Of a DNA stretch of 64,000 nucleotides, positions 27,301-45,472 are shown piece after piece. A program made the position numbers and the translations under genes. Where the stretch lies: contig NZ_FNRJ01000001.1 of assembly GCF_900107855.1 (NCBI RefSeq), positions 1 to 64,000 of the forward strand, given 5' to 3'. The notes beneath the pieces are model-generated. The model saw only the letters and a list, made by a program, of their open reading frames with translations. It searched no databases and had not been told where the DNA came from. Position 1 is the stretch's first letter, and every line of letters starts with the position of its first letter. Origin of the DNA: Marinobacterium iners DSM 11526. Its GTDB lineage: Bacteria > Pseudomonadota > Gammaproteobacteria > Pseudomonadales > Balneatricaceae.

Positions 27301-30300
27301 TCCAGTTCTTTTTGAAGGCACTCTTCACGGTATTAGTCAGCGTACTGCCGTAGTGCTGCACCTCTTCCAACACCTTGCCTTCAGGGTGGGCACTGAACAG
27401 AGTCGATGAGCTGTTATCATCGGGGGCATCCTTCTCTTGCGAGAAGAGCACCTTGTTATTCTTGCCACCGTTGGTTATATTTTCATCATAGCTGTCCGAT
27501 AGGGCAGGCTGCTCCTGGGAGGGTTGGGCAGAGTCTTCACCCTTAAGGTCAGGTGTCATGTAAAGCAGCCTGCCCGCCGATATCGCCTCAAGCACCTGCT
27601 TTTCTCGTTTCCGATAGGCTGAAATCATCACTTCCTGGCCATCTTTCTGGACCGTTGCTGCTACCAGCTCAATGAAGCGCCCCCTCGCTGTATCCTCAAA
27701 AGATTTGATAAACAGATAACTCTCGTCACGCTCTGCATGCTCGTGCGGTTTATGCTCTGCAACCACCAGCAACGGCCTTTCAAGAGTTGGGGCAACCATT
27801 GCAGCTTCTTTATGGCGGCCACGCTGCAGCAATTTTTCAACCTGATTCTGCCCGAGTTTTACGGTACCTATTGGCGTTTCAAAAAACCCATGCTCAAGTT
27901 GCTCACGTACACCAGGGTGGCTGATGTCTGCACTGGGCACAGGCTCAGCCTTATCCCTCATAGCAGCCAGAATGGCGGCGCTGTCAGGCTTGGCAAGCTC
28001 TTCTGTGCTCTGCGCAAAAGCAATTGGCATCATGCCTGCGCCAGTGCTGGAAGAGTCTACGCTGTAATGACCGGGTTTTCGCCCCGTTTTCAGGTAGCGA
28101 ACAGCATCAACCAGCATTTCATTCAACTCGGTCATACCGAACTGAAAATCTGCGCCCAGCTTACGCAAAAAGCGGCGGACAGCGGCCAACACCTTGGTTA
28201 GAATCGGGTGCTTCACACCGGTTTCAGCCATCTTGGCAACAATCTCGGCCGACTCAATATAGGGGTCTTTCTCTCCCTTTACCTGCTCGGCCAATTTGCG
28301 AATCGTGGGATTGGTCTGCTTCAGGTACTGGATGCGGTTCATTGCGTGGTCGAAATCATCACCCAGCATCCGCATCACAGCAAAGTGCCCCACCGCCTCA
28401 TGTGCCAGAATCTGACGAGCATGGTGTGGCGTGCGCAGATTATCGGCCACCAGCCAGATAGAACCGTCTTCGTAATCGTTCACGCCGCTCACGTTCTGAG
28501 CCTTCCTCATCCGGATCTGGCTCTGAATATGCTGCGGCAGATCGGTAATCGACTGCACCACATCAACTATCGGGCCTTTAGGCCAGCTCAGTACCTGCTT
28601 GGCAATGGCTTTCTGTACTTGATCAACGGTTTGACGCTTGGTCGGCTGACGCGCTTCTTGGCGGAACAGTACAATGTTCCCGGCGTCATCGGCACGTGTT
28701 TCAATCGTATTGAAAAGCTTGTCGAACGCATCTGACACTGGTCCCTGCTCGTCGGGCTTCAGGTACGGGTAGCGTCCCGGATCACGCTTGAAGCGCTCAA
28801 AACTGGTGACATTCGCCAGGAAGTCGTTGCGGTAATTCTGTTCGGCAAGCTTTGCAATAATATGGGTTTCGAACGACCGCGCTGATCGCTCAATGATCTG
28901 TGACCAATAACCATCAACCTTGCCCTTGTCGATAACTTCGGCGCGGGTTTTCATTGGTGACTCATCGAGTGTCGCCACAAGCTCAGCAAACGCACGCTCT
29001 ACTTCAGGGCGGATGCCTTGCGGATGGTTCGGATCTTCTATCCACTGTGACTCTTCAAAGCCCATGCCGCGCTCTTTGCGACGGTTATATTCAGCTTTGG
29101 TAATCAGGTAGGGCTCACGACCACCCTTTATGCTGGGCTTGTACGCCATCATTGGCTCAGGGTGGTAGGTAACAAAGCTACCTTTTCGGTACTCGGCTTG
29201 GTTGCCATTAAACCCCGTACCGCCACGCTTGCTGCTGAAATAGTTATCGAGCGCGTGAAACCATTCATGCGCCAGCGATCCCGCACCTTTGGTTTTAGTC
29301 AGGTTAATCACAGCGTTACCCGGCTCGTAGTGCGCTGCTGCGCCGCCGCGTCCACGCGAGCCAAAACCAATACCAAGCCGCCCTTCCAGGCTCAGCGCTT
29401 TAGGCGGCAGGTTCAGCACCTTTGCCAAGTCCATGAAGGCGTCATAGGCAACATTCAGCAACCCCTGCCGCTCTTGGCCGGACTTACCCTGCTTCACCCA
29501 ATTACCAAACTCAACCCCACGGAAACCGAAGGCCTCAATAAATTCATCCGGGGTAATATCCTTGCCGCCACGATAGTCCTGACCACTGCGCTCACGGTTC
29601 TTATCGCCCCGCATATCCGCCTTGGTGACGTTATCGCGTCGTTTCACCGCCTCCCATGCTTCCACTAGGTCGGCGTTGTTGTTGCGTAGATAATCGCGTG
29701 CTTCCGGCAAAGTATCGAAGGTTTTGAGTGCTCGGTACTCAGAGTCACCCGTCTTGTTGATCGAATACACGCCTGAGCGACTGTCACGGCGAATTTCGAA
29801 CTTCATTTCCGGCTTGGCAATATCATGCTTGCTCAACTTCTGCTGTACGTCGGCAATGATTTCTGCCACATCACCCCTGCCATAGAAGGCTTCATAACGA
29901 CCATCAATGGTTACACCTATCCACTTACCAGGCACCATCTTGTCGCCATCGTTGTAGCGGCCGGACGCCTTTTCGACTCGGCCAATACGATCCCACTGGC
30001 TGCGATCAATGCTAGCCAGAAGTTCTACACGGTCAGCAAAGGGCTTAAGGGTAACGCTGTCACCGGATCTAATTTTTTCAAGGATTCGACCAGAACCTAT
30101 CTCATCAACCAAACGCAGAACATCGCGGGCATGTTTCACTTGCTCAACCCAGCGCTTGATTTTGTAGCCGGCGCGAGGCTTGTTTGGTATTTCGCTGCGG
30201 GCTACATAGTAGATTGCGGCACTAACCGGATCTTCGATCCTTTTAATCTCATCCTTTGGCCAAAGCTTCGACATGGTAGTGGCGGCGATCTGCTTGTCAT

Positions 30301-33300
30301 CCATGCTTTCCAAACGTTCGCGCGCAGTACGCAGTTCATCCTTGCGAGCCCCGCCCAGCTTTTCACCGGCATCTTCGACAGCGGCTGGCGGCTCGGAACG
30401 CTCGGTATTACTGTCTGCTTGGTCATCAGCGGACTGGGCCTGTAGCGACTCTTCAAGCACCTGCTGAGTATCCAGATTACTTACAGGCTGCACCTCTTCA
30501 TCTTGCGAAACGGGTTTGCTTTTAACGCTTGATTGGAGACCAGCCGCCTCACCATCTACCCGATCATCGCCAGCCCGGCCATCAGTATCAGCGCCAGCGG
30601 CATCTGCAGACTCAGCATCAATAGCGGGTTCGACTCCCTCAATCTGAGCTTTATCCTGTCCACGTGCCTGACCACCCTCATTTCCTGCCCGGCGATAGCC
30701 ATATCCGTCACCTACCGGGACAATTTCATACTCATCAACAGCCCCTTCAACCTTATCGTCACGTACCTTGGAGCGCAGAGACGCCATTGCGGCCTTCTCT
30801 GACTTGAATGGCGCACCGCTGGCCGACACCTGTACATCCGCTTTTTGCTGTCGGCTTTCTTGCTTGTCTGCTTGCCTGTTCGTCTGAGTCACAGGCGTTG
30901 CAGGCATCTCTTTGCTGTCGGCTATTTCAACAGCCTGACTTACAGAAGGGGGCTCGCCCACCGATGGAACCGCCGTGTTATCAGCCACATTGAACAACCG
31001 GCTCAATTGCGCAGCTACATCAGCCTGCCGCTTCTTCGGCACCATCCAGCCCTGCTCCTTGCGGCGCCAGATCGCGTTCAGACCATTCTTGCCCAGCTTT
31101 TCCTTGTGCTCTTTCGGAATACCTTTGATGATCACCGCACGCTCGGTCAGCGGCTCAATGGTAGCGGTTACATCTGGGTATTGCGGGCCAGACGTATTAC
31201 TTTCAGCCTGTTCTGCAGCAGCGTCAGCCTCGGCCTTGCTGTCGGCTTTTTCGGTCTGCAGCGCCAGTGGCTGAGTAGTATCACCCTCTTTCAGCCACCG
31301 CTTGAAGTCAGCCTCTGTCATCTCAGAGGTTTGACCCAATCCCTGCCAGCCATCCTCATAGCTGGCCCTGTACCCGGCTTCGGCCTCCTCTAGGGAGTCA
31401 AAGCCAACCATCACCTTATGCTCGTCAAACTTGCCGGTCTTCGGATCTATCTGATCGACCACAAACACCCGGTCAGACTGGGGGTTGTCGCCAATGAATA
31501 CATCAATGTCCTCACCATCAGCCCCTTTATGGCCTTTGATATCACCGTAATGGTGCGCCATGCTGGTTTCCCAGCGGTTACCGTCGGCATCTTCGCCGGA
31601 TCGTGTCGAGCCCTTCGGGTTTTCAATGGCAATACTCAGGCCAGCGATATTTACACGGCCCTTCTTGTAGTTGTCCGCGTCGATCTGTGCCTGGGTGGGT
31701 TCTGTATTGGTTTCAGCGGCTGCAAGCTCCACTTGCTTGGGCGTCGGCTTTACCCCCTCGCGCATGAATTTTGGTGGTTCTGTGCGCAAGGCCGCCGCAG
31801 CAGCACGCTCTTCTTCGCGGCGCTTCGCATCAGCATCCGCCTCGGCAATCATCTCCCTCATCCGCCCATCCAGCCGTTCGCTTTCGCGAGACTTGCGCAG
31901 CCAGTCGGCATTGCCATGCATGTTGCCGGTTTCTGTATCCATCAGAACCGTCTCGCCATCCACTTCTTCCCAGCGGTAGCGAGTGCCGTTATAGGGCTCT
32001 GGCTCAGGTGCCGGCGGCGCATCACTGACGCGACCCTCCGTGTCCACATTACCGGCGGGGTCCACGGTCATGACTGGCTCAGGTGGCACAGGTGGTTTGC
32101 CTACTTCACCTTCAAGCCTCAGGGGCCCACCTGCCTTATCAAACCCATCCAGCACTGGTTTAAATGTTTTCTCTACTTCATTCAGGCCCTCTTCTAATAC
32201 CGCTTGCTGTCTATCACCCTCCGCTTTCAAACCCGATACTGTGCCAGCGGCACCCCCGTAACCACCGCCGGCTACAGCACCTGCCACCCCCTGATCCAGC
32301 GCTTCGGAGAACGACATGGCAGCATCAGTACCAAACCGCTCACCGACATACTCGATCATCCCTTCCTGAACAAATTCGGTCAGGGCTTCTTTCGACGCAG
32401 CCTTTCCGCCAGCCTGCGACACTCTTTTGGCTACGTGCTGAAAGCCTGCTTTCAGCATCTCAGCGCCCAATTGCTCTTTGCCAGCATCAGTAATGCCTTT
32501 TGCACCAATTCTTTCCAAAAGCGCAGAACCAACCGCAAACGGCGCAGCTTCAAGTACATCCTCAAACTCAGCAGTTTGCTTACCCTTGTTCTCAGCACGT
32601 GCCTGGCCAATCTCGCCTGACCTTGCAACGATATAAGCCGGCAAACTGAATACAGCTGCTGCCATGTCTGGGATCGACTTAATGCCTTGCTCCGTGGCGT
32701 ACATCGCAACTTCAGCCCATGCACTTCCGGCAAAGGGGCCGTTATTGCCAAACTCGCTTTTCACTTTTTCCCAAGTGTGATTTGGCACATACCCTGCATC
32801 AGTTTTTTCCCATGCATCGGCAGCAATATCCAACGCCCCCCTTATACCAGCCTTTTCCATTTTTACGCGGTACTCTTCCGGCCCATCGTATTTGAGGACG
32901 AAGTCATCACTCAAGCTCAGCCCCCCTAGAGGCAACAGCTCATCACCCTTATTTGCAACAGTATCCGCTGCCCTAAAAAGCCCACCCAAAAGCTGGCCTC
33001 CTCGTTCAAGCGCCCCGCGAGCCATGTTGTATTCCGGTGCAGCGGAGGCACTGCCTAACGCGTCCTTAGCGCCAAGGCTACGCTGCAGGTCCTCTCCGCT
33101 CCTGTCCAGAAGGTCTCTGGTGCTATGTTTATGCAAGCCTTGCGAAGGTGCTATATCGGGCTGAGTCATTTGATAAAAACGGTTACGCACCTGCTCTTCT
33201 GGAATCCCGCTTTCAAGCGCCCCTGGTAGAACGTGGTCTTTGAAATACGTATCTCGAACAATTCCTTTTTGCTCATCGGTGAAGCCTTGAAATCTTTCAC

Positions 33301-33334
33301 TTGCAGCCAGATCAGGCCACTGAAGAACTGTCAT
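24350..33334 (-). CDS. Giant polyvalent virion protein (2,994 aa) with several enzyme-like domains
   Basis: Last gene of the late operon. ATG 33334 follows GGAAGG. Visible regions: helical, partly hydrophobic N-terminus (about 100-370); inorganic-pyrophosphatase-like polyvalent domain (about 555-690, HHYGDIKGHKGADGEDIDVFIGD); a GIPKEHKEKL...QGWMVP module (about 720-785); a zincin-like LPD1 region with HEWFHALDNYF at about 1353; a second HEAVGH at about 1642; and a PBECR-type RNase-fold module (ETPIGTVKLGQNQVEKL ... VISAYRKREKQVLEAI, about 1815-1925). The C-terminal 500 residues resemble large polyvalent-associated domain LPD38. Polyvalent proteins are thought to be injected with phage DNA to counter the host. 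Position after the ejection proteins fits. Individual domain names are pattern-based. Confidence 0.85.
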   Translation of the reverse strand: MTVLQWPDLAASERFQGFTDEQKGIVRDTYFKDHVLPGALESGIPEEQVRNRFYQMTQPDIAPSQGLHKHSTRDLLDRSGEDLQRSLGAKDALGSASAAPEYNMARGALERGGQLLGGLFRAADTVANKGDELLPLGGLSLSDDFVLKYDGPEEYRVKMEKAGIRGALDIAADAWEKTDAGYVPNHTWEKVKSEFGNNGPFAGSAWAEVAMYATEQGIKSIPDMAAAVFSLPAYIVARSGEIGQARAENKGKQTAEFEDVLEAAPFAVGSALLERIGAKGITDAGKEQLGAEMLKAGFQHVAKRVSQAGGKAASKEALTEFVQEGMIEYVGERFGTDAAMSFSEALDQGVAGAVAGGGYGGAAGTVSGLKAEGDRQQAVLEEGLNEVEKTFKPVLDGFDKAGGPLRLEGEVGKPPVPPEPVMTVDPAGNVDTEGRVSDAPPAPEPEPYNGTRYRWEEVDGETVLMDTETGNMHGNADWLRKSRESERLDGRMREMIAEADADAKRREEERAAAAALRTEPPKFMREGVKPTPKQVELAAAETNTEPTQAQIDADNYKKGRVNIAGLSIAIENPKGSTRSGEDADGNRWETSMAHHYGDIKGHKGADGEDIDVFIGDNPQSDRVFVVDQIDPKTGKFDEHKVMVGFDSLEEAEAGYRASYEDGWQGLGQTSEMTEADFKRWLKEGDTTQPLALQTEKADSKAEADAAAEQAESNTSGPQYPDVTATIEPLTERAVIIKGIPKEHKEKLGKNGLNAIWRRKEQGWMVPKKRQADVAAQLSRLFNVADNTAVPSVGEPPSVSQAVEIADSKEMPATPVTQTNRQADKQESRQQKADVQVSASGAPFKSEKAAMASLRSKVRDDKVEGAVDEYEIVPVGDGYGYRRAGNEGGQARGQDKAQIEGVEPAIDAESADAAGADTDGRAGDDRVDGEAAGLQSSVKSKPVSQDEEVQPVSNLDTQQVLEESLQAQSADDQADSNTERSEPPAAVEDAGEKLGGARKDELRTARERLESMDDKQIAATTMSKLWPKDEIKRIEDPVSAAIYYVARSEIPNKPRAGYKIKRWVEQVKHARDVLRLVDEIGSGRILEKIRSGDSVTLKPFADRVELLASIDRSQWDRIGRVEKASGRYNDGDKMVPGKWIGVTIDGRYEAFYGRGDVAEIIADVQQKLSKHDIAKPEMKFEIRRDSRSGVYSINKTGDSEYRALKTFDTLPEARDYLRNNNADLVEAWEAVKRRDNVTKADMRGDKNRERSGQDYRGGKDITPDEFIEAFGFRGVEFGNWVKQGKSGQERQGLLNVAYDAFMDLAKVLNLPPKALSLEGRLGIGFGSRGRGGAAAHYEPGNAVINLTKTKGAGSLAHEWFHALDNYFSSKRGGTGFNGNQAEYRKGSFVTYHPEPMMAYKPSIKGGREPYLITKAEYNRRKERGMGFEESQWIEDPNHPQGIRPEVERAFAELVATLDESPMKTRAEVIDKGKVDGYWSQIIERSARSFETHIIAKLAEQNYRNDFLANVTSFERFKRDPGRYPYLKPDEQGPVSDAFDKLFNTIETRADDAGNIVLFRQEARQPTKRQTVDQVQKAIAKQVLSWPKGPIVDVVQSITDLPQHIQSQIRMRKAQNVSGVNDYEDGSIWLVADNLRTPHHARQILAHEAVGHFAVMRMLGDDFDHAMNRIQYLKQTNPTIRKLAEQVKGEKDPYIESAEIVAKMAETGVKHPILTKVLAAVRRFLRKLGADFQFGMTELNEMLVDAVRYLKTGRKPGHYSVDSSSTGAGMMPIAFAQSTEELAKPDSAAILAAMRDKAEPVPSADISHPGVREQLEHGFFETPIGTVKLGQNQVEKLLQRGRHKEAAMVAPTLERPLLVVAEHKPHEHAERDESYLFIKSFEDTARGRFIELVAATVQKDGQEVMISAYRKREKQVLEAISAGRLLYMTPDLKGEDSAQPSQEQPALSDSYDENITNGGKNNKVLFSQEKDAPDDNSSSTLFSAHPEGKVLEEVQHYGSTLTNTVKSAFKKNWTADLRPAWLGALTRRHLADLAGNTLPQIKRYVKTAGLMDARRNELLSVGSELAEKWTAFNLRNRKEAQELAELMHDTTIAGVDPSRKYTVLTTPEDVEALRQKNTRLIKERSKDGAGGGKSGIRSDAHLRQEIEDAETTLAQERNRAKARAGLERRFNSLSPEAQALYREVRDAYKDRQRMTMEALERRIGRTLEDGEQAKALLDALRAKFESVQVQEPYFPLARFGRYWVSATRGDERVFEMFEEAKQQAEYIDKMNRQGYRVRHGAKLDDLKQLDGVSAKFIGQLDGMLDERLGDWPKVDALRDDIYQMYLQTLPDLSLRKHFIHRKKTAGYAKDALRAYADSMFHGSYQLARLEYSDLLDEQLREMREGLEADPEQVAADLALHDEAQGYSKLAEGSIRSMLGDAQRRINNAKGDPDKDDLHQKAVAQLALKYRKEPTKTKAEFGRLERTAQAAKQIGRDKVKATDLYNEMLKRHEWAMNPKGAAWANMASSIGFTWYLGVSPAAALVNVTQTPMVAFPMLAARYGWKESADALMNASREFVAGKGGVESVLTGDRLKAYREAVRTGVIDKTLAHDLAAVSQEGATYNPVRHKVMSVISWSFHNAERLNREVTYMAAYDLARAKGRTHRAAVDFAHEFVWDSHFDYSSGNKARFMQGDVAKVILMFRQFSLNMTYRLARDAYNSLKGESPEVKQLARRQLAGILGMHFMFAGAMGLPLWSVLGGVLNAIFDDEDDPWEFDTEFRNFLADTFGKEVGHAIAHGPVQALTGYGISGRVSLNNLWLRESNRELEGRDKVQYWFEQLLGPMGGIALGAGTASQLWSEGHHWRAIESTVPKFLKDGLKAIRYHNEGVNNLRGDTLVESMDWDKVVSQMLGMTPAELQERYEANNAIKNAEQRLKDRRRLLMNRFALAYRQNDPEFLAEVRREIVRFNKHNPPIRITRGHLMRSMRSRRSHSRDQIQGIVVDRKLRYLTENGRFVE

Positions 33335-33338
33335 AACA

Positions 33339-34613
33339 TCACCTTCCAAAACCGAATTTATTTAGATAGAGGTCTACAGCGGGTGCTGTTTGCTGTGGGT
33401 TTGGCTGCCCTTGCTGTGAGTTGTTTTGCTGAACGTTCGACACCCACTCCACGGCACCAAATTCATTGTTTGGATCAACCGGCTTGAACGAACCAACCAC
33501 ATCACCGGAGGCAATATCAACAAGCACCCTAGACCCCGAATCCGGATCAGAAATCAGCTTATGCGTACCATAGGCCACACCTCGCGCCACACTATCCGGC
33601 ACACCAAGCTCCAGCATCTCTTGATACTCACGCTGTTTGGTTGTGGCCTTGCCGCCACCAGGCGTGCCGCCAAGATCACGAACTTGGCCATCGGACTTGT
33701 TGTATATGGCGTCATCATTCAGGCGCGCCCATTCGCTTGTCCCAGCCGGCAACCAACCATGTAGCTTGCCGTACTGCTTCACTCGGCCGCGAAACTCTTC
33801 TGTATTGGTGATTTGAGCCATCTGCTGGTACCCAGCCAGTTGTTCGGCAATATCCCCCAGTGACACCTGCATTACATCCAGGCCTTTGCTGTCACGGCCA
33901 ACCGTCATCGGCGCACGGTAAGGCTTGCCGTTCTCTGGCTCCACCTGCAGATCGAACACTAGCGTCCCCGGCTCGAAGCCGGGCAATACCGCCGCTATTC
34001 TCTTCTTGCCGCCTTCGCCCTTGTTGATTTGAGTGGCATACAGGGTATTGAAAGCCTCCAAGGCTTCGGGGTTGTTTGCGAACTTCAGTACCGAGTCATC
34101 GTTGTTCAGGTCGCCTTTGTTTGCGGCATCCGTCAGGTACTGAATAGACTGGCCCACAGCAGGGTTCGCCAGGTGCAGGGGCGACAAGTGCTGATAGCTT
34201 TGGTTCTCGAAAACTCCCATCTCATCGTCACCAACATCACCACCAATAGCCAGACGCTGGTAGATACTCCCTATCCGCTCAAGATCCCGCTTACGCTGCT
34301 GCTCTTCCTTTTGCATTCGTAACGCTTCTGCTGAACGCTGCCCTTGTGCTTCCTGCAGCCCCAGCATGCGTCCGCGATAATCGGCATTCTCAGCATCCAG
34401 TTTTGTCTGCCGTTCCTCCTGCCGGTCCAGGCGGGTCGTTCTGTCTTCGAACTGGTCCATCCGCAGCCCAAATTCTTGTTTGCGGTACTGGCGGTTCTCA
34501 TCGTCCAGTGTCTGCTGTCGTTGCTTCTGTTCTTCCTTGTCGTAATACCGGTCCACAAACGAAAAGCCCCGCATGAACCCATCGGCCAGGCCGCGTGTAT
34601 CCAATCCCGCCAT
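33339..34613 (-). CDS. Internal virion (ejection) protein, coiled-coil rich
   Basis: 424 residues from ATG 34613, which overlaps the previous gene's stop (TAATG). Residues 15-110 are a long charged coiled coil full of Gln, Arg and Glu (QKQRQQTLDDENRQYRKQE ...). The C-terminal part is mixed and ends in a Gln/Asn/Pro tract. Such proteins line the ejection channel of podoviruses. Immediately precedes the giant protein (4-nt gap). Function inferred from location and composition. Confidence 0.65.
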   Translation of the reverse strand: MAGLDTRGLADGFMRGFSFVDRYYDKEEQKQRQQTLDDENRQYRKQEFGLRMDQFEDRTTRLDRQEERQTKLDAENADYRGRMLGLQEAQGQRSAEALRMQKEEQQRKRDLERIGSIYQRLAIGGDVGDDEMGVFENQSYQHLSPLHLANPAVGQSIQYLTDAANKGDLNNDDSVLKFANNPEALEAFNTLYATQINKGEGGKKRIAAVLPGFEPGTLVFDLQVEPENGKPYRAPMTVGRDSKGLDVMQVSLGDIAEQLAGYQQMAQITNTEEFRGRVKQYGKLHGWLPAGTSEWARLNDDAIYNKSDGQVRDLGGTPGGGKATTKQREYQEMLELGVPDSVARGVAYGTHKLISDPDSGSRVLVDIASGDVVGSFKPVDPNNEFGAVEWVSNVQQNNSQQGQPNPQQTAPAVDLYLNKFGFGR

Positions 34614-36936: not shown

Positions 36937-37264
36937 ACTCAAAAACCTTTTCAAGATACTGCGGGCCAGCGTCAACAAAAATTTGGTAAGTACCAGGCGC
37001 GTCAAAAACAAACTCAGGTTGTTCATGACAGCGATACTCATGCCCTTCAATGTAAACAGTGCACGGGAGCGGAAGGCTGTTAAGCTGATAATCTTTCCGT
37101 CCTGCCAGGCGACCACCATCCCAATACTCTGAATCCGTATCAGGAACACGGTCGATATCGACAATTTCTACCACTGGGGGCTGCAAATAATTGCGCAACA
37201 GTTTCTCATCCACATTTTGCAAATACCCAAGGATACGCCCACCGGTACCAATCAAACCCTTCAT
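36920..37264 (-). CDS. Small tail-fibre-linked protein, 114 residues
   Basis: ATG 37264 overlaps the fibre stop as ATGA. Central VDIDRVPDTDSEYWDGGRLAG and the C-terminal beta-rich FVFDAPGTYQIFVDAGPQYLEKVFEYDYQP are typical of short phage accessory proteins located between fibre and DUF4376 genes. Role unknown. Confidence 0.55.
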   Translation of the reverse strand: MKGLIGTGGRILGYLQNVDEKLLRNYLQPPVVEIVDIDRVPDTDSEYWDGGRLAGRKDYQLNSLPLPCTVYIEGHEYRCHEQPEFVFDAPGTYQIFVDAGPQYLEKVFEYDYQP

Positions 37265-38904
37265 CGCTTCAGCCCTATAACGGTAAGGGTCCGCTCTTGG
37301 ACATATGCCCCATTGGTTGGGGCATATATCCATACTGAGTATTCCTGTGTGATGTTGCCAGGGCTCTCGTCTATCCAAGACATGAACAGAGTTCCCCAGC
37401 CTATAGAAGACTGCCCGTATTGCGACGTTGAGTAAGTCTTACTCTGAACAACAGTGTTACCCCGTCTAACCTCAAGGGTGAAATGCGCGGGGTTATAACG
37501 TGCAGGCTCACCATTGTCCATGAAGTCAGCAGGCCTAAACCAACCGAGAAAGTTAATAAATGCTCGCCCGTTTTCACTATTTACGTAGAGCGACGCAAGC
37601 CTATAAGCCGTTCCAACACGAACGAAATTACTAAACCCAAGCTGGCCAGGGCTGGCAGGGTTTCCTACGTACACTTTATTAAGATAATATGCCCCGCTTG
37701 GTATTGTTACAGCTTGGCCTTTTATTTTTAACGTGCTCACAGACAAGTCTTTTATGTGGCCCTCACCCACAATATCAAGAGAATTTGCTTTTAGGCTCGA
37801 AGCCTCTATATCACCCCTTGCATAAATATCCCTGAAATACGCGATTCCGTTTCGATAGATCGCCCATCCCTTGGTGGCAGAATAGTTGTCCGATTGTATG
37901 ATATTGGCAAGTTTTGCAGATCCAATTTGTGCGTCACCTATCTTTGCAGACTGAATTGACCCGTCCGCGATCTTGGCGCTATTAATAGCAGCGTCGCCAA
38001 TCTGGGCTGTGCCGATGGTGCCGTTTCTAATGTACGCGCCATCCATGACGGTTTTTCCATTAAACACACCGAAGACAAGCTGTTGTGATGCAGATGGGTG
38101 AAAAATGCCAAACTGATCTGCGTTGATAATAAATCGACTGGTGTTACTGCCTGCCTTATTCGGTTCAGACGACAGGCCATACCCAGCCACTCGGCCATTG
38201 GCGTCAATCTTGACCGTGTAACTGGCCGACAGCCCGTCGATTTTCTTCTTTTGTTCGATTATGGTTTCGTCTGTTTCGGTCAGCCGCGTAGTAAGGTCTT
38301 CGTGAAGCTGGCTTTCCGTCAGGCGCCCTTCCAGCAATTTTAAGACATACTCCGGGTCCATCGCAGGTGCAGCAGAAACCCCATTGGTGTCGTGAGGCGG
38401 CCCCTCAACGCCCTGTTCTGAGACAAATACCACCCAGTAAAAGTATGTGCGAGCCTCCCCGGTTTCATCATCTATTTCGCTGCCGTGAAGGTTGTCGACA
38501 TACATCGTCCCAGCGGCTGTGCCGATAACCGCCGCGTTTGCGAAGTTATCCTCACCCGCTCGATATATTCTCGCGTAGCCATGATTGCTGTAACGAGGCG
38601 AATCCCATGTAATGAATATCGTCCCGAGCCCCGGCGTAGCCACCACTCCGCTTGGTTTTGGTGGCGTCGACATGTCAGGCTTACCATCGATGCCCGGCAG
38701 AATATTACCAGCGTCACCGGGGCGCATCCCCGGCTTGATCCGCGCAATGCCTGATCCGAGCAAGTCCCTGAGCGTTACCTTACGGTCCAGCGGGTCGCCA
38801 CGGACACCCTCCCCAATTTCAACTAGCTCCTTGATCGCCTGCTGGAACTGGAGCTGTTGCCTGTCTTGGCTATTCGGGACGTTGGGAAGCCCTCTTTTCA
38901 TCAA
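37261..38904 (-). CDS. Tail fibre or host-specificity protein (protein J C-terminal type)
   Basis: 547 residues. Fibronectin-III-like segment (about 80-175, PSGVVATPGLGTIFITWDSP), then a helical stretch and the DUF1983-type core (SYTVKIDANGRVAGYGLSSE, SRFIINADQFGIFHP, VFNGKTVMDGAYIRNG). A 10-residue-type repeat follows (IGTAQIGDAAINSAKIADGS). The C-terminal 150 residues are the likely receptor-binding part. The same architecture ends lambda protein J. Overlaps both neighbours as ATGA. Confidence 0.8.
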   Translation of the reverse strand: MMKRGLPNVPNSQDRQQLQFQQAIKELVEIGEGVRGDPLDRKVTLRDLLGSGIARIKPGMRPGDAGNILPGIDGKPDMSTPPKPSGVVATPGLGTIFITWDSPRYSNHGYARIYRAGEDNFANAAVIGTAAGTMYVDNLHGSEIDDETGEARTYFYWVVFVSEQGVEGPPHDTNGVSAAPAMDPEYVLKLLEGRLTESQLHEDLTTRLTETDETIIEQKKKIDGLSASYTVKIDANGRVAGYGLSSEPNKAGSNTSRFIINADQFGIFHPSASQQLVFGVFNGKTVMDGAYIRNGTIGTAQIGDAAINSAKIADGSIQSAKIGDAQIGSAKLANIIQSDNYSATKGWAIYRNGIAYFRDIYARGDIEASSLKANSLDIVGEGHIKDLSVSTLKIKGQAVTIPSGAYYLNKVYVGNPASPGQLGFSNFVRVGTAYRLASLYVNSENGRAFINFLGWFRPADFMDNGEPARYNPAHFTLEVRRGNTVVQSKTYSTSQYGQSSIGWGTLFMSWIDESPGNITQEYSVWIYAPTNGAYVQERTLTVIGLKR

Positions 38905-40505
38905 ACCAGTTCCTCCGGTGACTGAGCGATCTGCACGCTGAATACTTCGGCGGTACCTTCCAGTTCAATCTGCCATTCTCGGACACGGTTATAACCGGCC
39001 GGCAACCTGAACATGCTGCCGTTTGGTACGGTGTATTCAAACGCAGTTTGACCGTCGCCAATCAGTCGCAGCATGGTCGGTCCATCGGCAATGACTTTGC
39101 CGCAAGTGAAGCCAGTGCGACCGGTCTGTACCTCAAAGATGCCGGATCGCCACAGGTAAGCAGCCTGAGCACCTTTGTCCCACTCCTTTAGCGTTGACCC
39201 AAGCGACACGCACAGGGTGTCTGTGTGGCGATCATAGTAGCCACCATGAGCGTATTCGCTGCAGAAGGTAACGCCCCGTTCCGGTGAGAATACAAAGCTG
39301 CCAGGCGTGCCGTTATCGTAGAACGCCACATAACTGGCACCGACACGATAGGCATGGATGGTTGCCGGATTCAGTGCCTGCCATTCCTTCTCTGAAAATA
39401 CCTTGCTGGTGATCAGCTGGGCGCCAGAGCTGGACACAGCTACCAACCCGTCCGGGCTGGCATAAATGGCAAACTCACCCATGTCCACCATTGAGCGCTT
39501 ACTGACGCAGGCCCGGTTATCGTCAATGCGTACCGCCGACATGGCGGACGGGCTAGAGCCGGTCACAATCACCGGCGCCCCTTTGGTAGTGACCAGCAGG
39601 CCTGCCGTTGTCTCAGCAACGGCAACGATGTCATCCTGTAATGACAGGCGGTACCCAATCGGCCACGCATGTGGCCTACCGGCTTCACTGAAGGTCAGAA
39701 CATTATCGTAGAAGCCGTACAGTGCCCCGCCAGGTGAATACCCTATGCCGGACATGTTTTCAGCAGGCGGGTCCCAGTCGATAGACGGGCATGCGATACC
39801 GAGCTCGGCGCTCAATATGTTATCGATATAACTTGTTGAGCCGTAAGGCACATCAGCAACATACTGAAACGATCCAGACTCGGCGCGATATATCCGGATT
39901 GTTCGTATGTCCGTTGCTGCGGTTAACCCACCGGGAATAGTGACCAGCACACCGCCAACACTTCCTTCATCATCCGCATCCCATCGCACAACAGGATTGC
40001 TTGGTGGGCTGGGCGGTCCTTCTTCGTCGTACGCCGTAACAAAAGTGAACACATAAACAGCCGTTACAGCCGTAATCGGCTCTTCCCCTCTGTCAGAATC
40101 CGGTGTGGCGGCCGGGGGGGATTCAGGCGCAGGCACACCCAACCTTAGTCCAGATCTTGGATATGGCATGCTGCCTGCTGTGGCCGTGCTGATCGACGCC
40201 ATCATGGGATGCGCATACCCGCCACCGCACCAATAAATCCGTTCCCATGCATCATCGATAATCGGTGACCGCACAACATCCACCTCGTCAGCAAAGGCGA
40301 GCCACTGGCCGTTTGCATACTTGTAGACAGTCTTCGGGTTTGTTCGGCCTGTTGTAATACCTGAATCACGCAAGCCTTTCATCGCCTGCAAAGATTGGAG
40401 TGACGTATCGGCATTGCGTGCATACTGAGCAAAGCCAGGCTGGATTCGTCTCGGTGTAATACCCGGTAGTGCAGAGTTAAATGCACTAATTTGAATGGCG
40501 GCCAT
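38901..40505 (-). CDS. Tail tube/nozzle-like structural protein
   Basis: 534 residues, nearly all beta. Blocks such as GTTGRTNPKTVYKYANGQWLAF-like, TFVTAYDEEGPPSPPSN and NMSGIGYSPGGALYGFYDNVLTFSEAGRPHAWP look like repeats of a propeller or nozzle protein common in podoviruses, comparable in role to T7 gp12. No homology can be claimed beyond that. Directly upstream of the protein J-like fibre. Confidence 0.6.
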   Translation of the reverse strand: MAAIQISAFNSALPGITPRRIQPGFAQYARNADTSLQSLQAMKGLRDSGITTGRTNPKTVYKYANGQWLAFADEVDVVRSPIIDDAWERIYWCGGGYAHPMMASISTATAGSMPYPRSGLRLGVPAPESPPAATPDSDRGEEPITAVTAVYVFTFVTAYDEEGPPSPPSNPVVRWDADDEGSVGGVLVTIPGGLTAATDIRTIRIYRAESGSFQYVADVPYGSTSYIDNILSAELGIACPSIDWDPPAENMSGIGYSPGGALYGFYDNVLTFSEAGRPHAWPIGYRLSLQDDIVAVAETTAGLLVTTKGAPVIVTGSSPSAMSAVRIDDNRACVSKRSMVDMGEFAIYASPDGLVAVSSSGAQLITSKVFSEKEWQALNPATIHAYRVGASYVAFYDNGTPGSFVFSPERGVTFCSEYAHGGYYDRHTDTLCVSLGSTLKEWDKGAQAAYLWRSGIFEVQTGRTGFTCGKVIADGPTMLRLIGDGQTAFEYTVPNGSMFRLPAGYNRVREWQIELEGTAEVFSVQIAQSPEELV

Positions 40506-40516
40506 CTCGCAATGCC

Positions 40517-40954
40517 TTAAAGTGAGAATTCGGGGTTATCGAGAATTTTCCGCGCTCGCTCAATAGTTATGATCCCTTGAGCAACAACATAAGCAACACC
40601 CTTATTCAGGTCAGGATCATCTTGTGCAACAACCGGCGTAGCAGCAAGATCGTCAATAAAAACCTTAATCATAATATTGGTTTCAGCTGCTTGATAAAGC
40701 GCGATTTTTTCATTAGGAGTAAACCGCATCCGAAAGTCTTTTAGTGGCCATCGAACACTTTCAGATTCATATGCTAAATTAGGATCAGGGTATTCAGACA
40801 CTGTAAACCATTTCCTTCCATCCCATACGTGGAACCCGTCACCTTGTGGAGGCGGCACGTTAACAAAATTTCGCGGGACTGGGTCACGGAACATAAATTC
40901 ACGGGCCTCACCGGTGAATACTTTATTACCGTCTAGCCCATACCAAATACCCAT
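40517..40954 (-). CDS. Probable tail-fibre assembly protein, 145 residues
   Basis: N-terminal MGIWYGLDGNKVFTGEA and a GFHVWDGRKWFTV segment resemble phage tail-assembly chaperones. The C-terminal part is helical with a repeated hydrophobic pattern (GVAYVVAQGIITIERARKILDN). Three bases after the propeller-collar gene, so likely its dedicated chaperone. Confidence 0.5.
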   Translation of the reverse strand: MGIWYGLDGNKVFTGEAREFMFRDPVPRNFVNVPPPQGDGFHVWDGRKWFTVSEYPDPNLAYESESVRWPLKDFRMRFTPNEKIALYQAAETNIMIKVFIDDLAATPVVAQDDPDLNKGVAYVVAQGIITIERARKILDNPEFSL

Positions 40955-40956
40955 AA

Positions 40957-42117
40957 CTACACCTCTTCTACTCGAATCAATGGCCGCGCCAGCTGTGAAT
41001 TACCAAGAGATAGCGCGGGCAAATCTGGCAGCTGGAGCACACCAGCGATAACTATGTTGTTACTAAAAACACGGTATCCCGGGGACCCGCTGAAACCAAC
41101 TACCGCGTAATCCCCGTCTGGGTGTATATCGCATGAATACGATGAAACACCTCCGCTGGAATGCAAAAGGGTTAACGAGGAGGCGTCATAAATGCGGTAC
41201 GTATCCCCGTACTGGGTGGTGGCGATTAAAAAACTGCCGTCTGCCGTATACGCAATTGATCTTATGGAGTTAGTGCCAATAGTGTTAACAGAAGGTAGAA
41301 GCGTCCACGCAGAAGCGTCTAGCTGGTACAAGTAAGGGTATGAGGTGGTAGCAACTGACACAACCGACCCATCCGGGGTAAACGCAACATCCGTCGGTGT
41401 ACCACCAATGGTAAAGCTGCTACCAAAACTGACGGCAGAGAAATCAGCCGAGTTATATACAAAAATACGTGGGGCAGACGATGATACCGTAGCAATCTTA
41501 CTACCATCCGGCGACTCGGAAAAAGATATAACGGAGTGTCCGGTAATATTAGATCCCGCAACCTCAGCCCAAGTAGCGGTGTCGAATGCCCTGAAATATG
41601 GCGATGACGAATAGGCGATATATACACGCGAACCGTCATTGCTAAATCGTATCTTATTGCCCTTAACCTGATGGCCAAACTCATTTGTTAGGCGAACAAC
41701 CTGACTCCAATCTGCGGTGCTTATGATATCGGTATAGGCCGACGTGCAATACGCCATGAGGCTGGAATCCGGACTAAACGCGATACCATAAACAGCAGAA
41801 GTAGGGACTATGCCATGATCAACAGTAGACCAATCGTTAACACGACGGATAGCCAAGCGCCCATAGTTATTATGGCCACACGCTAAATACATACCATCAG
41901 GACTGAAAACAGTCGCCCGGTGGTAATCACTAGCTCCCCAAACACCATTAACGGCCTCAGTGAACGGGAGCTGTGCAAGCCCTTCCTGCCCAGCATCCGA
42001 GAAAACACGAGCCAGCGCGGGGTACGCATCGGCATTAATAAGCGAACCATCCGCCGGAAGCGTGCCAGGTAAAACACCCGAGATACCTGCAATGATATCC
42101 CCTACCTTCGCCGTCAT
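40957..42117 (-). CDS. Tail adhesin: WD40-like beta-propeller within a collar-like domain, copy 2
   Basis: 386 residues. The N-terminus (GDIIAGISGVLPGTLPADGSLINADAYPALARVF) looks like the first strand region of a phage collar domain, and the matching end (VLQLPDLPALSLGNSQLARPLIRVEEV) returns at about 355. Between them lie about six or seven repeats with FSPDGMYLACG, FSPDSSLMAYC, FSNDGSRVYIAY, ESPDGSKIATV, FTPDGSVVSVA, YTADGSFLIAT and HPDGDYAVVG, each followed by a hydrophobic strand and often W. This is a WD40/YVTN-like beta-propeller. Paralogue of the gene upstream. A receptor-binding role is inferred. Confidence 0.7.
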   Translation of the reverse strand: MTAKVGDIIAGISGVLPGTLPADGSLINADAYPALARVFSDAGQEGLAQLPFTEAVNGVWGASDYHRATVFSPDGMYLACGHNNYGRLAIRRVNDWSTVDHGIVPTSAVYGIAFSPDSSLMAYCTSAYTDIISTADWSQVVRLTNEFGHQVKGNKIRFSNDGSRVYIAYSSSPYFRAFDTATWAEVAGSNITGHSVISFSESPDGSKIATVSSSAPRIFVYNSADFSAVSFGSSFTIGGTPTDVAFTPDGSVVSVATTSYPYLYQLDASAWTLLPSVNTIGTNSIRSIAYTADGSFLIATTQYGDTYRIYDASSLTLLHSSGGVSSYSCDIHPDGDYAVVGFSGSPGYRVFSNNIVIAGVLQLPDLPALSLGNSQLARPLIRVEEV

Positions 42118-42118
42118 A

Positions 42119-43357
42119 CTAAACCCTCGCTACTATTAATGGCTTGTAGCCCGTAGAACCGCTAACACTGGGGTAAGTAGCTTCAAGATTCGGCAGTACC
42201 AAATAACCATCCGGCGCCCACAAAGGGCCATACGCCAAACTACCACTATTAGAAGCCAACGCGACGAAAGCGCCATCATCTGAAATAGCTCCTCCATACT
42301 GGCTCATCGTAACCTCACCAAAAACTGTATGACTCATATCAGCCAAGGAAATAATGTGATTTCCTGCCAGCAAGAAATCCCCAAATCCTTTTATTGCGTC
42401 AGAACCTACGTAGTAAGGTAGAGGGCCTATAACAGCGACCTCAGAGCGGTCACTGACCAGATATTTACGGAGATAATTACTCGAATCCACAGTGAAGAAA
42501 TGCAGGCCATCTGGGCTAAAACACGCACCTTTCACTAAATTAATAGTGCCTGCACCATCGCTAACCAGCGTACCATCAGTCGCGTCATAAAGCCCATATC
42601 CCTCAGCACCAGAGCTAGAGGTAATAAGAAAATAACTGCCTGTAGGGTCAACGGCTAGACGGTTTGATCCGAGGGCGACATTAAACGCAAAGTCAAACGA
42701 AGGGTAAGTCCGGGCGCGCAGGGTGTTACCCTCTTTATAGAAAAAATGCGTGTCGCTAAAATTAAAACCAGAAACAACATTAACAGCCGTAAGGACAGTC
42801 TGATCTGACCAGTCAACTGTAGAGAACTGTTTTAAACGCCCCGTGCCTGAGTGAGCGACGATAAGTAAAGCACCGTCGGGTGAGAAAATTACATCGGCCA
42901 CATAATTCTGAGACGAGGGTCCGTCAGCCACCGGCTCCCAAGTAGTTGTATCATAAATAACTAAATATGGCGCTACGCTGTACCCAACGGCCAGGTAGTT
43001 GCCATCTGGCGAAAACGATACGGCTCTTGAATCACGGAGAATGGTACTGTTTATAGTGTCAAAATTTTTTGTTTTAAGAACTGCGGCCAGTTCAGGCCAT
43101 TCAGCTGCGCTAATAAGACTACCGTCACACACTAAATATTTATCAGACGCATACTCAGGCAGGCCATTAAACGCATACATTTCCAAAGTGTTATATACCA
43201 ACTGGCCAACAACTTCACCACCCCGGGGAAGGTCAGCTATAACAGCTGGGTACTGCGTAAACGGAATTCCAGAAAGGTCCACCCCTCTATCAGTCAAAGC
43301 GGTCTTTATTCCCGTTTTCACGTCCGCGAGCGTCTGCAGCCTATTAGCGATAGTCAT
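42119..43357 (-). CDS. Tail adhesin: WD40-like beta-propeller within a collar-like domain, copy 1
   Basis: 412 residues. N-terminal helical adaptor (LQTLADVKTGIKTALTDRGVDL), then collar-like YLVCDGSLISAAEWPELAAVL near 73-95. Propeller repeats follow (FSPDGNYLAVGYSVAP, FSPDGALLIVAHS, DPTGSYFLITS, FSPDGLHFFTV, ISDDGAFVALAS), and the collar end YLVLPNLEATYPSVSGSTGYKPLIVARV closes the protein. One base separates it from copy 2. Repeats are more degenerate than in copy 2. Same inferred role. Confidence 0.7.
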   Translation of the reverse strand: MTIANRLQTLADVKTGIKTALTDRGVDLSGIPFTQYPAVIADLPRGGEVVGQLVYNTLEMYAFNGLPEYASDKYLVCDGSLISAAEWPELAAVLKTKNFDTINSTILRDSRAVSFSPDGNYLAVGYSVAPYLVIYDTTTWEPVADGPSSQNYVADVIFSPDGALLIVAHSGTGRLKQFSTVDWSDQTVLTAVNVVSGFNFSDTHFFYKEGNTLRARTYPSFDFAFNVALGSNRLAVDPTGSYFLITSSSGAEGYGLYDATDGTLVSDGAGTINLVKGACFSPDGLHFFTVDSSNYLRKYLVSDRSEVAVIGPLPYYVGSDAIKGFGDFLLAGNHIISLADMSHTVFGEVTMSQYGGAISDDGAFVALASNSGSLAYGPLWAPDGYLVLPNLEATYPSVSGSTGYKPLIVARV

Positions 43358-43719
43358 ACACCAAGCACCCCATCAAGCACAGCAGCTACATCGCCCAGCT
43401 GGCTACCCACCAACTCAACCAGCAGGCCCGCGTTAACCCGCGCCTCACCCCGCGTATTCACCGACCACTCACGCGCAGTAGTATTGTCCTGCTCACGCTC
43501 AATTGTCAGTTCATCGCCGAGCACCGCCGTGACTTTAACAACCTCCCAATCAGTCTCCTGCCCATTCGTGACCTCAATGAGCGTCAGGTAGAAATAGTCA
43601 CTCGCCCCAAGGGCCGGAAACTGGGCACCTTCACCCGCTTGCAGAAATAGCGTGGTACCACCAACAGCCAGCGGCATTGCCAACCGAATAGATTTATTGT
43701 TGAGCAACTTGATAGCCAT
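43354..43719 (-). CDS. Phage tail-fibre-region protein, 121 residues
   Basis: Beta-rich with GGTTLFLQAGEGAQFPALG and LTIEREQDNTTAREWSV, a pattern common in podovirus proteins placed before fibres and giving a small baseplate or fibre-attachment domain. Overlaps the adhesin gene as ATGA. Role inferred. Confidence 0.55.
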   Translation of the reverse strand: MAIKLLNNKSIRLAMPLAVGGTTLFLQAGEGAQFPALGASDYFYLTLIEVTNGQETDWEVVKVTAVLGDELTIEREQDNTTAREWSVNTRGEARVNAGLLVELVGSQLGDVAAVLDGVLGV

Positions 43720-44021
43720 CAGTAATCTCTCACCCGTGCGCGAAGCTCAACCTGCTTTGTACGACCCTCACGCGTTGTGGTCGTAACCTCAACCTTATAT
43801 GACTGCCCGCCTAGACCTTTTTCGAGCCAGATTTTGGCAATCGGCGTACTGTTAATCACATACTTGGTAGCCAGATCATCCGTGCTGATGGCAACCCCAT
43901 CCAATCGAGTAATATCAACATTGATCGTCTGCAGCGTATCTCCGGCCCTAAGCCACTCGCTAAAATCGATGTCGTAATCCAGCACTTCAGCTGGTTGCTT
44001 CGTAATAGAGCCTATATTCAC
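43719..44021 (-). CDS. Small phage fibre/tail adaptor-like protein, 100 residues
   Basis: AEVLDYDIDFSEWLRAGDTLQTINVDITR and VINSTPIAKIWLEKGLGGQSYKVEVTTTTREGRTKQVELRARVRDY are typical of the Ig-like, about 100-residue phage proteins linked to fibres. Single-base overlap with the next gene. No enzyme motif. Confidence 0.6.
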   Translation of the reverse strand: MNIGSITKQPAEVLDYDIDFSEWLRAGDTLQTINVDITRLDGVAISTDDLATKYVINSTPIAKIWLEKGLGGQSYKVEVTTTTREGRTKQVELRARVRDY

Positions 44022-45472
44022 GCGACAAACCTCCTGTCATCATCGGGCACAGCAAATTCGGTAATGTAGCCAGGGACAATGAATGTACGGAATTCTGGCG
44101 CGGGCCTACTCAGGTTGGAGCCAGGCTCCGCCCTTGCAGTCAGTAGCTCAAGCCCGCTGAACGCAGCCATATGGCGAACAGTGAAAGGCTGTGACAAAGA
44201 GCTGAACGCATAACCGGCGTGCTGCATGCCCGTATCCACTCTTCGGTAGACGTTTATCCACCCAGTTTCGGGAGATAATGAAATCTCAGACACAGCCCTA
44301 AAGCCGCGAGAGGTTTGCCCAGCGCCAACACCAGAAAGCACGCAAGCGCCATCTGCTCGATAACCGCGAATGATCGTTGAATATTCAAAGCTATCTACGC
44401 TGAACGAAGCGATCCCCTTCGATAGCCGCGTGCGGGTAGGGCCTGCAACAGAAGCACTGAAATCAAAGGCTGTAACCGCGTCAGCAAGCGACGCAATGTT
44501 CCACAACAAAGGATCAGCACTGAAACCGACTGTCGTTTTTGCTGCAACGTATAGCCGTGTCCACGCCCTCGCCGTACTCCCAAAGCCAAAGTCTGCCAGG
44601 CCATGTACATTCGTGCGCACGCGTGCGTCATCGGACGCAACCACCTTTCCAAATGACCCAGTCGCTGTGGCTTCATGTATGCCATTGATCGCCGGCTGTG
44701 CTACAGAATCAATGGAAAGCACTGCCGCGCCTTTGGCATCGGACAACACCATCTGCCGGGCAGTACCTGTAACTGCAACTTCAGCCCTGCCCCGGTAGCC
44801 AATGATCGGGTTACCGCTACCGCTTGCCGTCAGGCTGATATACGCATCTTCAGGACGAATCCCGCCTGCTGAAAGCGACACAAATCCAAATTGAGCATGT
44901 TCGATAGAACCAGACTGCGTAACCGTTTGGCGCGCAGTACACGCCATCCCCAAAGCAGCCCCAACATGGGTGTAATGAACCTTACTGCCTACTGCAGAAT
45001 CCGTTGAAATCGAAGTCCGCACCTGTGACCCGAGCGCAGGTACTCGCCGCGTACCCTCTGCAGTCGGAGTGAGATGCAGCTGAACCGCATCACCATAGCC
45101 CCATGTGGCAACACGACCACGACCGCTGGCATTTATCCCGGCTTGCGCAACGCCTGCCATGTATCGAGTCACAGCCGCTGTGCAGCTTGTATCAATGCAT
45201 ACGGCGCCAGCTCCAATCGGTTTTACCCAACGAGTGCCACCACCACTCACCTCAAGATCAGTGAGCGTTTGTCCGTAGCCATTTGTTTCAACACGCATCG
45301 ACACGTCATGCGACGCGGTGGCAATGGTCGCCTGACCTGCCGCGGGCTGAATAACGGAAATATATGCGGATGCAGCAAGGCCAAGCACCGCGGCCGCTGC
45401 TCCATCCTTGAAATAGGACGAACCGCCACCGTTCAGTGACGATCCGTTAATGGCGGTACTATTGAGCGCCAC
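44018..45472 (-). CDS. Large beta-repeat phage structural protein, 484 residues
   Basis: Rich in Ala, Gly, Ser and Thr, with repeats of roughly 38-45 residues such as ATASHDVSMRVETNGYGQ, AGVAQAGINASGRGRVATWGYGD and ATATGSFGKVVASDDARVRTNVHGLADFGFGSTARAW. Probably an elongated tail or head-appendage protein. No known domain recognised. Compositionally like its neighbours and in the same coupled chain. Confidence 0.55.
   Translation of the reverse strand: MALNSTAINGSSLNGGGSSYFKDGAAAAVLGLAASAYISVIQPAAGQATIATASHDVSMRVETNGYGQTLTDLEVSGGGTRWVKPIGAGAVCIDTSCTAAVTRYMAGVAQAGINASGRGRVATWGYGDAVQLHLTPTAEGTRRVPALGSQVRTSISTDSAVGSKVHYTHVGAALGMACTARQTVTQSGSIEHAQFGFVSLSAGGIRPEDAYISLTASGSGNPIIGYRGRAEVAVTGTARQMVLSDAKGAAVLSIDSVAQPAINGIHEATATGSFGKVVASDDARVRTNVHGLADFGFGSTARAWTRLYVAAKTTVGFSADPLLWNIASLADAVTAFDFSASVAGPTRTRLSKGIASFSVDSFEYSTIIRGYRADGACVLSGVGAGQTSRGFRAVSEISLSPETGWINVYRRVDTGMQHAGYAFSSLSQPFTVRHMAAFSGLELLTARAEPGSNLSRPAPEFRTFIVPGYITEFAVPDDDRRFVA

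What the first reader, a model, noticed from the sequence alone, without database searches (positions are those of the whole stretch)
40957..43357. Tandem tail adhesins built as WD40-like propellers inserted in a collar-like domain
Both genes start with a collar-like (P/C)xDGSLI...A(Y/W)P.LA element and end with an LP(D/N)L...(R/K)PLI strand pattern. Between them run FSPDG-type propeller repeats. The pair is duplicated back to back with strong divergence. A propeller carried as an insertion in a collar scaffold is an unusual adhesin design; two divergent copies suggest a widened or switched receptor range.
Basis: partly seen in the sequence, partly recalled or inferred. Interest (0 to 1): 0.75.

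Follow-up and report, generated by a model that had tools for sequence, protein, structure and literature searches.

The report
Phage adhesins: propeller inside a collar
Two neighbouring genes of a virus integrated in a bacterial chromosome seem to encode cell-gripping proteins in which a propeller-shaped domain sits inside a small holder domain, a layout that also turns up in several unrelated viruses of bacteria and may be an interchangeable host-recognition part.

Summary
A (40957-42117, minus) and B (42119-43357, minus) are collinear (27% identity). Each has the N-terminal half of a PF07484 tail-collar domain, then WD40-like repeats of about 44 residues (about seven, counted by eye), then a short LP(D/N)L...PLI end. 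They lie in a Bcep22/Lessievirus-like prophage, near a fibre-tail adaptor gene.

The layout is not unique. By sequence I count 12 such proteins in 9 phages or contigs, including Salicola phage CGphi29, Caulobacter phages Percy and KSC, and a three-gene array on one 168 kb contig. CGphi29 encodes next door the same collar without a propeller, which marks the insertion point. Inserts are of at least two repeat types. T4 gp12 and gp37 also carry their tip within a collar, but after the LPDxRG strand; here the insert comes before it.

Six WD40-like inserts of this set are not one clade (AU p 8.5e-5), which suggests repeated exchange. Whether A and B are sister copies is unresolved (p 0.23). No structure could be predicted (tool off). 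The C-half of A is weak and that of B is not found by a model of the others. Receptor binding is inferred.

The parts
40957..42117 (-). gene A, 386 aa: collar N-half, WD40-like propeller, collar-like C-terminus
41974..42105 (-). A residues 5-48: collar N-half (GDII...LPADGSLINADAYPALARVF)
   Evidence: PF07484 profile 13-35 of 57, E 0.044; model of other N-halves, 0 of 2000 shuffles as good
41044..41973 (-). A residues 49-358: propeller repeats; repeat motifs at residues 71, 114, 158, about 201, 246, 290, about 333 (last count by eye)
   Evidence: Pfam WD40-type models; motif positions; repeat offsets 43-46, 88, 132, 173-176
40960..41043 (-). A residues 359-386: putative collar C-half (LQLPDLPALSLGNSQLARPLIRVEEV)
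   Evidence: aligned with other C-halves; statistics weak
42119..43357 (-). gene B, 412 aa: N-terminal helical-looking module, collar N-half, propeller, collar-like C-terminus
43223..43357 (-). B residues 1-45: N-terminal module (LADVKTGIKTALTDRGVDLSGIPFTQYPAVIADL), which A lacks
   Evidence: translation and alignment; nature by eye only
43052..43222 (-). B residues 46-102: collar N-half (YLVCDGSLISAAEWPELAAVL)
   Evidence: PF07484 profile 10-37 of 57, E 5.4e-4; 0 or 2 of 2000 shuffles as good
42212..43051 (-). B residues 103-382: propeller repeats, more degenerate than in A
   Evidence: repeat offsets 43 and 122
42122..42211 (-). B residues 383-412: putative collar C-half (LVLPNLEATYPSVSGSTGYKPLIVARV)
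   Evidence: similar to A's end, 11 of 5000 shuffles as good; not found by a model of the others
43354..43719 (-). separate 121-aa tail-fibre anchor; its stop overlaps the start of B (ATGA)
   Evidence: 8jov_1 putative tail fibre protein E 6.3e-15; phrog_8469 E 1.1e-20; Burkholderia phages 43%
43719..44021 (-). fibre-tail adaptor
   Evidence: PF23148 Gp77 E 3.8e-18; 8jou_D E 3.6e-16
40517..40954 (-). 145-aa protein directly downstream of A, function unknown
   Evidence: phrog_25252 E 2e-9
38901..40505 (-). internal virion protein; the Lessievirus gene at this position is called head closure protein
   Evidence: phrog_511 E 1.4e-140; position in JC1

Best explanation
A and B are receptor-binding tail proteins of a Bcep22/Lessievirus-like podophage (prophage). 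Each is built on a tail-collar chassis. The chain makes the first part of the collar (to the helix YPxLA), leaves it to form a WD40-like propeller of about seven blades, and returns to make the last collar strands (LP(D/N)L...PLI). The first and last blades of a propeller meet, so it can sit on one loop without breaking the collar. The collar would trimerise as in T4 short and long tail fibres, presenting three propellers; a separate short anchor protein and an adaptor join the assembly to the tail. The propeller face or rim would bind a surface sugar or protein of the host. Two divergent adhesins in one operon, and propellers traded between phages, would let the lineage keep up with host surface change. 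Shown by sequence: collar N-half, propeller repeats, gene slot, the same layout with an empty counterpart elsewhere, more than one propeller lineage. Inferred: co-folding of the two collar halves, trimerisation, anchoring, receptor binding.
For: Collar N-half and propeller. Insertion point: CGphi29 SLPG_00038 is a PF07484 member above its cut-off (27.1 against 24 bits); against its neighbour SLPG_00037 it aligns in two pieces, the second 18 of 34 identical and lying after the propeller (that end pair 0 of 5000 shuffles). In the split proteins that the Collar model finds, the match stops at profile position 35-41 of 57 (A, B, CGphi29 gp37, G193, L166, Percy), while an ordinary collar (L170) and T4 gp37 match 1-57. 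L170, which carries the same YLQSAYP motif, matches T4 gp12 1ocy from the collar to the last strand (E 1.6e-8). A search with the collar N-halves of G193 and Percy alone gave 4 distinct new proteins, 3 with a repeat insert and 1 ordinary. Gene slot.
Against: No structure prediction ran. The C-half of A and B is not secure by sequence, nor is that of L166 (127 of 2000), L169 (932 of 2000) and Percy (224 of 2000). The Collar matches of A and B are below Pfam's cut-off; the three G194 proteins (limit 0.5) and L168, L169 and KSC (limit 0.05) have none. A and B lack the GP4-type anchor, so their place on the virion is inferred from gene order.
Confidence: 0.7

Rival explanations
1. Serial domains: an N-terminal collar fragment used as a linker or trimer seed, then a C-terminal propeller with its own short closing tail; no shared collar fold.
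For: The C-half is weak by sequence in A and not found in B. Many propeller proteins of phage contigs do without a collar: by eye 26 of the 28 loci printed (29 stretches matched).
Against: CGphi29 gp37 and gp38 share the collar end with and without the propeller. The C-half model finds CGphi29 gp37 and L168 better than any of 2000 shuffles. A and B share the end motif with each other (11 of 5000).
Confidence: 0.15
2. The propeller is an enzyme (glycosidase, lactonase or sialidase-like) that cuts the host surface, and the collar merely holds it.
For: Propeller enzymes are common, and weak Lactonase (PF10282) and BNR (PF02012) matches occur in relatives.
Against: For A and B the best Pfam matches are WD40-type binding propellers. 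Active-site residues were not examined.
Confidence: 0.1
3. A and B are not adhesins: assembly factors, or worn genes of a decaying prophage.
For: They lack the anchor domain that Lessievirus tail fibres carry. B is more degenerate in its repeats.
Against: Both frames are intact and tightly packed, they occupy the tail-fibre slot, and the collar occurs in annotated tail fibres of isolated phages.
Confidence: 0.05

Closest known systems
T4 gp37 distal long tail fibre and gp12 short tail fibre (collar with tip)
   Same: Collar made of two separated chain pieces with the distal part carried between them: gp37 D10 811-881 and 1010-1026 with D11 882-1009 inserted (PMC6957217, passage); in gp12 the collar and the last strand match an ordinary collar with the head between.
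   Different: In T4 the cargo follows the whole Pfam collar (gp37 816-863), after LPDxRG, and is a needle or head. Here it comes before LPDx, at about profile position 36, and is a propeller; the T4 loop is shrunk to about 10 residues.
Phage Tail Collar Domain PF07484
   Same: Same N-terminal part (P.G.L..DGS......YP.L).
   Different: Ordinary members run straight on to FnLPDlRG; here 280-600 residues intervene.
Salicola phage CGphi29 SLPG_00037 and SLPG_00038
   Same: gp37 has the same layout; it stands in tandem with a collar paralogue.
   Different: The paralogue is empty, whereas both window copies are filled.
Propeller tail proteins without a collar (Rhodobacter phage RcHartney gp27, Pseudomonas phages USP_18, ZRG1, POR1)
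   Same: FSPDG-type repeats related to those of A and B.
   Different: No collar motif found by eye; RcHartney gp27 and USP_18 end in another small domain.
Lessievirus (Bcep22-like) tail-fibre locus
   Same: Adaptor, anchor-type fibre N-terminus and gene order.
   Different: There the fibres carry the anchor in the same chain and, in DC1 and JC1, other tips; here the anchor is a separate 121-aa protein.

Membership tests
Phage Tail Collar Domain PF07484 | match above the curated cut-off (24 bits) | tested here: not met
   A 14.2 and B 20.3 bits; the empty paralogue CGphi29 gp38 meets it with 27.1
Phage Tail Collar Domain PF07484 | N-terminal half with DGS and the YPxL helix | tested here: met
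Phage Tail Collar Domain PF07484 | LPD strand and last strand completing the domain | tested here: inconclusive
   present as a motif; statistics weak for A and absent for B
WD40-like beta-propeller | repeats of about 40-46 residues with significant profile matches | tested here: met
WD40-like beta-propeller | closed ring of a set number of blades | not testable with these tools
   structure prediction switched off
T4-type tip-in-collar adhesin | tip inserted after LPDxRG | tested here: not met
   insert lies before LPDx
T4-type tip-in-collar adhesin | homotrimer binding a host receptor | not testable with these tools
   needs structure or binding experiments
Lessievirus-like tail fibre | GP4-type anchor at the N-terminus of the same chain | tested here: not met
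   the anchor is the separate ORF 43354-43719
Lessievirus-like tail fibre | gene slot next to the adaptor | tested here: met

The most novel reading that the evidence does not exclude
The collar loop between the YPxL helix and the LPD strand is a general propeller socket: a phage receptor-binding chassis, distinct from the T4 one, that has repeatedly taken up beta-propellers of different superfamilies in phages of different types and hosts, so that host recognition changes by exchanging whole propellers while the collar stays.
Probability: 0.5. Interest if true: 0.72.

Novelty: new variant of a known kind. Interest (0 to 1): 0.6.

Why it matters
If true, it defines a second insertion loop of the tail-collar fold and a modular adhesin design that ordinary annotation misses: 'hypothetical protein' in CGphi29 and plain 'tail fiber protein' in Percy and KSC, with Collar matches mostly below cut-off. 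It would help to pick receptor-binding genes out of prophages and viral contigs, and it offers a natural with/without pair (CGphi29 gp37 and gp38) for asking what a propeller adds to a collar.

Tried and rejected
Close relatives: none in phages at DNA level; for A only partial propeller matches in 3 records, for B none at 1e-5; in IMG/VR only the prophage itself. Related genomes: A matched 75 of 193, almost all over about residues 100-340 of the query; the one that I read through, in the own genome (L004), looks like a cellular YVTN-type propeller. B matched only the own genome (1 of 193). A profile of collar N-halves (A7) in 369 and 398 partly overlapping genomes found, besides the own, 3 and 2 genomes, all with ordinary collars by eye. 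So the layout is rare in sampled genomes.

My motif scan of 90 loci asked for two FSPDG-like motifs and found the full layout only in the window's own copies; it missed CGphi29, which a loose tblastn and reading revealed, so it understates. Of 257 phage records matching the G193 collar at E up to 10 I fetched 8 and read 7 proteins: 1 (Percy) has a propeller-like insert, 6 do not. The eighth (phiH2) matched on the strand opposite its annotated gene and was dropped.

Duplication: the tree of 20 WD40-like propellers has few firm branches and several long rows (A's neighbour RcHartney27 among them); grouping of the six split ones is no tighter than in 65 of 500 shuffles. The tree leaves out L166 and the BNR-like inserts. 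A repeat without the long rows was planned, but the script failed before it. For Percy the repeat test is not convincing (22 of 200 shuffles) and a PDB search of its insert found nothing; its insert is called propeller-like by eye and by its relative KSC.

Full report
What is there. A (40957-42117) and B (42119-43357) are two minus-strand ORFs of 386 and 412 aa, one base apart; B starts inside the stop of a 121-aa ORF (43354-43719), and A is followed two bases on by a 145-aa ORF. The window lies in a 3.92 Mb, 50-contig genome, and the region is held in IMG/VR as a 54.9 kb provirus-type record. Terminase, portal and major head protein genes, and a 2999-aa multidomain protein, lie around it. The gene order around A and B (adaptor with PF23148; fibre anchor; phrog_511 protein) follows Burkholderia phages DC1 and JC1 of the genus Lessievirus. 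The anchor and the adaptor match solved tail proteins 8jov_1 and 8jou_D (E 6.3e-15 and 3.6e-16).

Anatomy. Both proteins start with the first part of a tail-collar domain: Pfam Collar covers profile 13-35 of 57 in A (E 0.044) and 10-37 in B (E 5.4e-4), both below the curated cut-off. Models of collar N-halves without the window proteins score A above all 2000 shuffles and B above all but 0 or 2 of 2000. Then come repeats with WD40-type profile matches and a period of 43-46 residues. I count seven in A by motif and eye (residues 71, 114, 158, about 201, 246, 290, 333; one search lists most of them) and think B has as many, though only some are clear. The ends read LPDLPAL...ARPLIRVEEV and LPNLEAT...YKPLIVARV. 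A and B align from the collar piece to the PLI motif at 27% identity, E 3e-12; their ends alone are alike beyond all but 11 of 5000 shuffles.

The same layout elsewhere. (1) Salicola phage CGphi29 SLPG_00037 has a collar N-half, about 320 residues of repeats and a C-half; the next gene, SLPG_00038, is the same collar without the insert. The pair aligns in two pieces that flank the propeller, the second 18 of 34 identical, and SLPG_00038 is a Collar member above cut-off. This is the clearest evidence that the end of the chain belongs to the collar. (2) A 168 kb viral contig (G194) has three such genes in a row, two with exactly seven FSPDG motifs 46-47 residues apart, each joined to a laminin-G-type lectin domain. 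(3) An 85 kb contig (G193) has the collar N-half followed by a different repeat (YGNGLFVAVA...SPDGITWTQ, 40 residues) at one end of the record, and the same repeat followed by YDPITQFQLPNQP...AYIKAEDIA at the other end. That this is one gene across a circular end is inferred. (4) Caulobacter phages Percy and KSC: a T7-type fibre N-terminus, a collar N-half, about 580-600 residues, and a C-half. (5) A search of IMG/VR with the G193 and Percy collar N-halves alone gave 7 loci; setting aside the two queries (L165, L171) and one copy (L167, identical to L166 where printed), 3 of 4 carry a repeat insert (L166 WD40-like, L168 BNR-like by Pfam E 3e-5, L169 by its 40-residue period) and 1 (L170) is an ordinary collar. 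In all I count 12 proteins in 9 phages or contigs: A, B, CGphi29 gp37, G194 x3, G193, L166, L168, L169, Percy, KSC. The count is by sequence and partly by eye; for Percy the repeat test fails to convince (22 of 200 shuffles), for L168 it gives 1 of 200, for the other ten 0 of 200 (in which only the C-terminal part of G193 was tested).

The insertion point. Wherever the Collar model finds a split protein, the match stops at profile position 35-41 of 57. The ordinary collar L170 and T4 gp37 (residues 816-863) match 1-57. L170 bears the same YLQSAYP helix as the socket collars and aligns with T4 gp12 (1ocy, E 1.6e-8) through the LPD strand to the last strand NYIIK. In T4 gp37 the tip (882-1009) is an insertion in the collar (811-881 and 1010-1026) (PMC6957217, passage), that is, after the Pfam domain. 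So the T4 fibres and the propeller proteins both split a collar, but at different loops: T4 after LPDxRG, the propeller proteins before it, with the T4 loop cut to about ten residues.

History. In a tree of 20 WD40-like propellers the six split ones do not form one clade (AU p 8.5e-5), and A groups with L130 and RcHartney gp27, which have no collar (96/91), apart from B; a clade of A and B is not rejected (p 0.234). Long rows make single placements unsure. With a second repeat type in the same slot (G193, L168 and probably L169, Percy, KSC), this favours repeated uptake or exchange of propellers, although loss of the collar from some lineages cannot be told from gain on this tree. Propeller proteins without a collar are commoner: of 29 viral stretches found with an FSPDG-type DNA pattern, 28 were printed and 2 (the window's own and G194) have a collar by eye.

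Mechanism. I think A and B are the host-binding tips: collar for trimerisation and attachment, propeller for binding, the anchor and adaptor linking them to the tail. The chain leaves and re-enters the collar at neighbouring points, which suits a ring whose first and last blades touch. This mechanism is inference from anatomy and from T4. What would overturn it: a structure without co-folding of the two collar pieces, or absence of A and B from virions. The weak point is the C-half of A and B, which no model of the others secures (A: 8 of 2000 shuffles as good, 277 of 2000; B not found in either).

Known or new. Ten paper searches in the open PMC library showed, in titles and abstract starts, no paper describing a propeller within a tail collar. 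'phage' with 'collar domain' and 'WD40' gave 0 papers; 'phage' with 'tail collar domain' and 'propeller' gave 1, whose two passages concern other proteins. One search listed 15 of 115 papers. Of the papers I saw passages of PMC3004832, PMC6957217, PMC6851490 and PMC10743442 and only listings of the others. Subscription papers are not held. I therefore call it a new variant of a known kind: tip-in-collar adhesins with a different loop and a different cargo.

Noticed in passing
L088:7055-8122 (Salicola phage CGphi29 SLPG_00039): The gene after the collar pair looks by eye like an FGE/C-type-lectin-fold protein of the kind that diversity-generating retroelements vary; no retroelement was sought.
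   Followed up: no
L156:1182-7899: Three collar-propeller genes in a row on a 168 kb viral contig, each also carrying a laminin-G-type lectin domain, placed before the collar in one and after it in two; two of the propellers are near-perfect repeats.
   Followed up: partly
window 44018-45472: A 484-aa ORF in the tail module without a Pfam or PHROG match at the limits used.
   Followed up: no
window 37261-38904: A 547-aa protein with a Phage_Tail_Tip match (PF09327, E 4.4e-23) in a podophage-like module, so this prophage may have a further fibre.
   Followed up: no
window 24350-33349: A 2999-aa protein with DarB-like, methyltransferase, endolysin and helicase-type PHROG matches, like the giant multidomain protein annotated in phage DC1.
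   Followed up: partly
window 43719-44021: phmmer also lists WD40 chains for the adaptor (2ymu_A E 3.3e-10), but with no single stretch passing; probably an artefact of summing over repeated targets.
   Followed up: no
L108:5954-7957 (Pantoea phage PdC23): A tail fibre with the same N-terminal anchor type whose body looks by eye like a glycoside-hydrolase type propeller.
   Followed up: no
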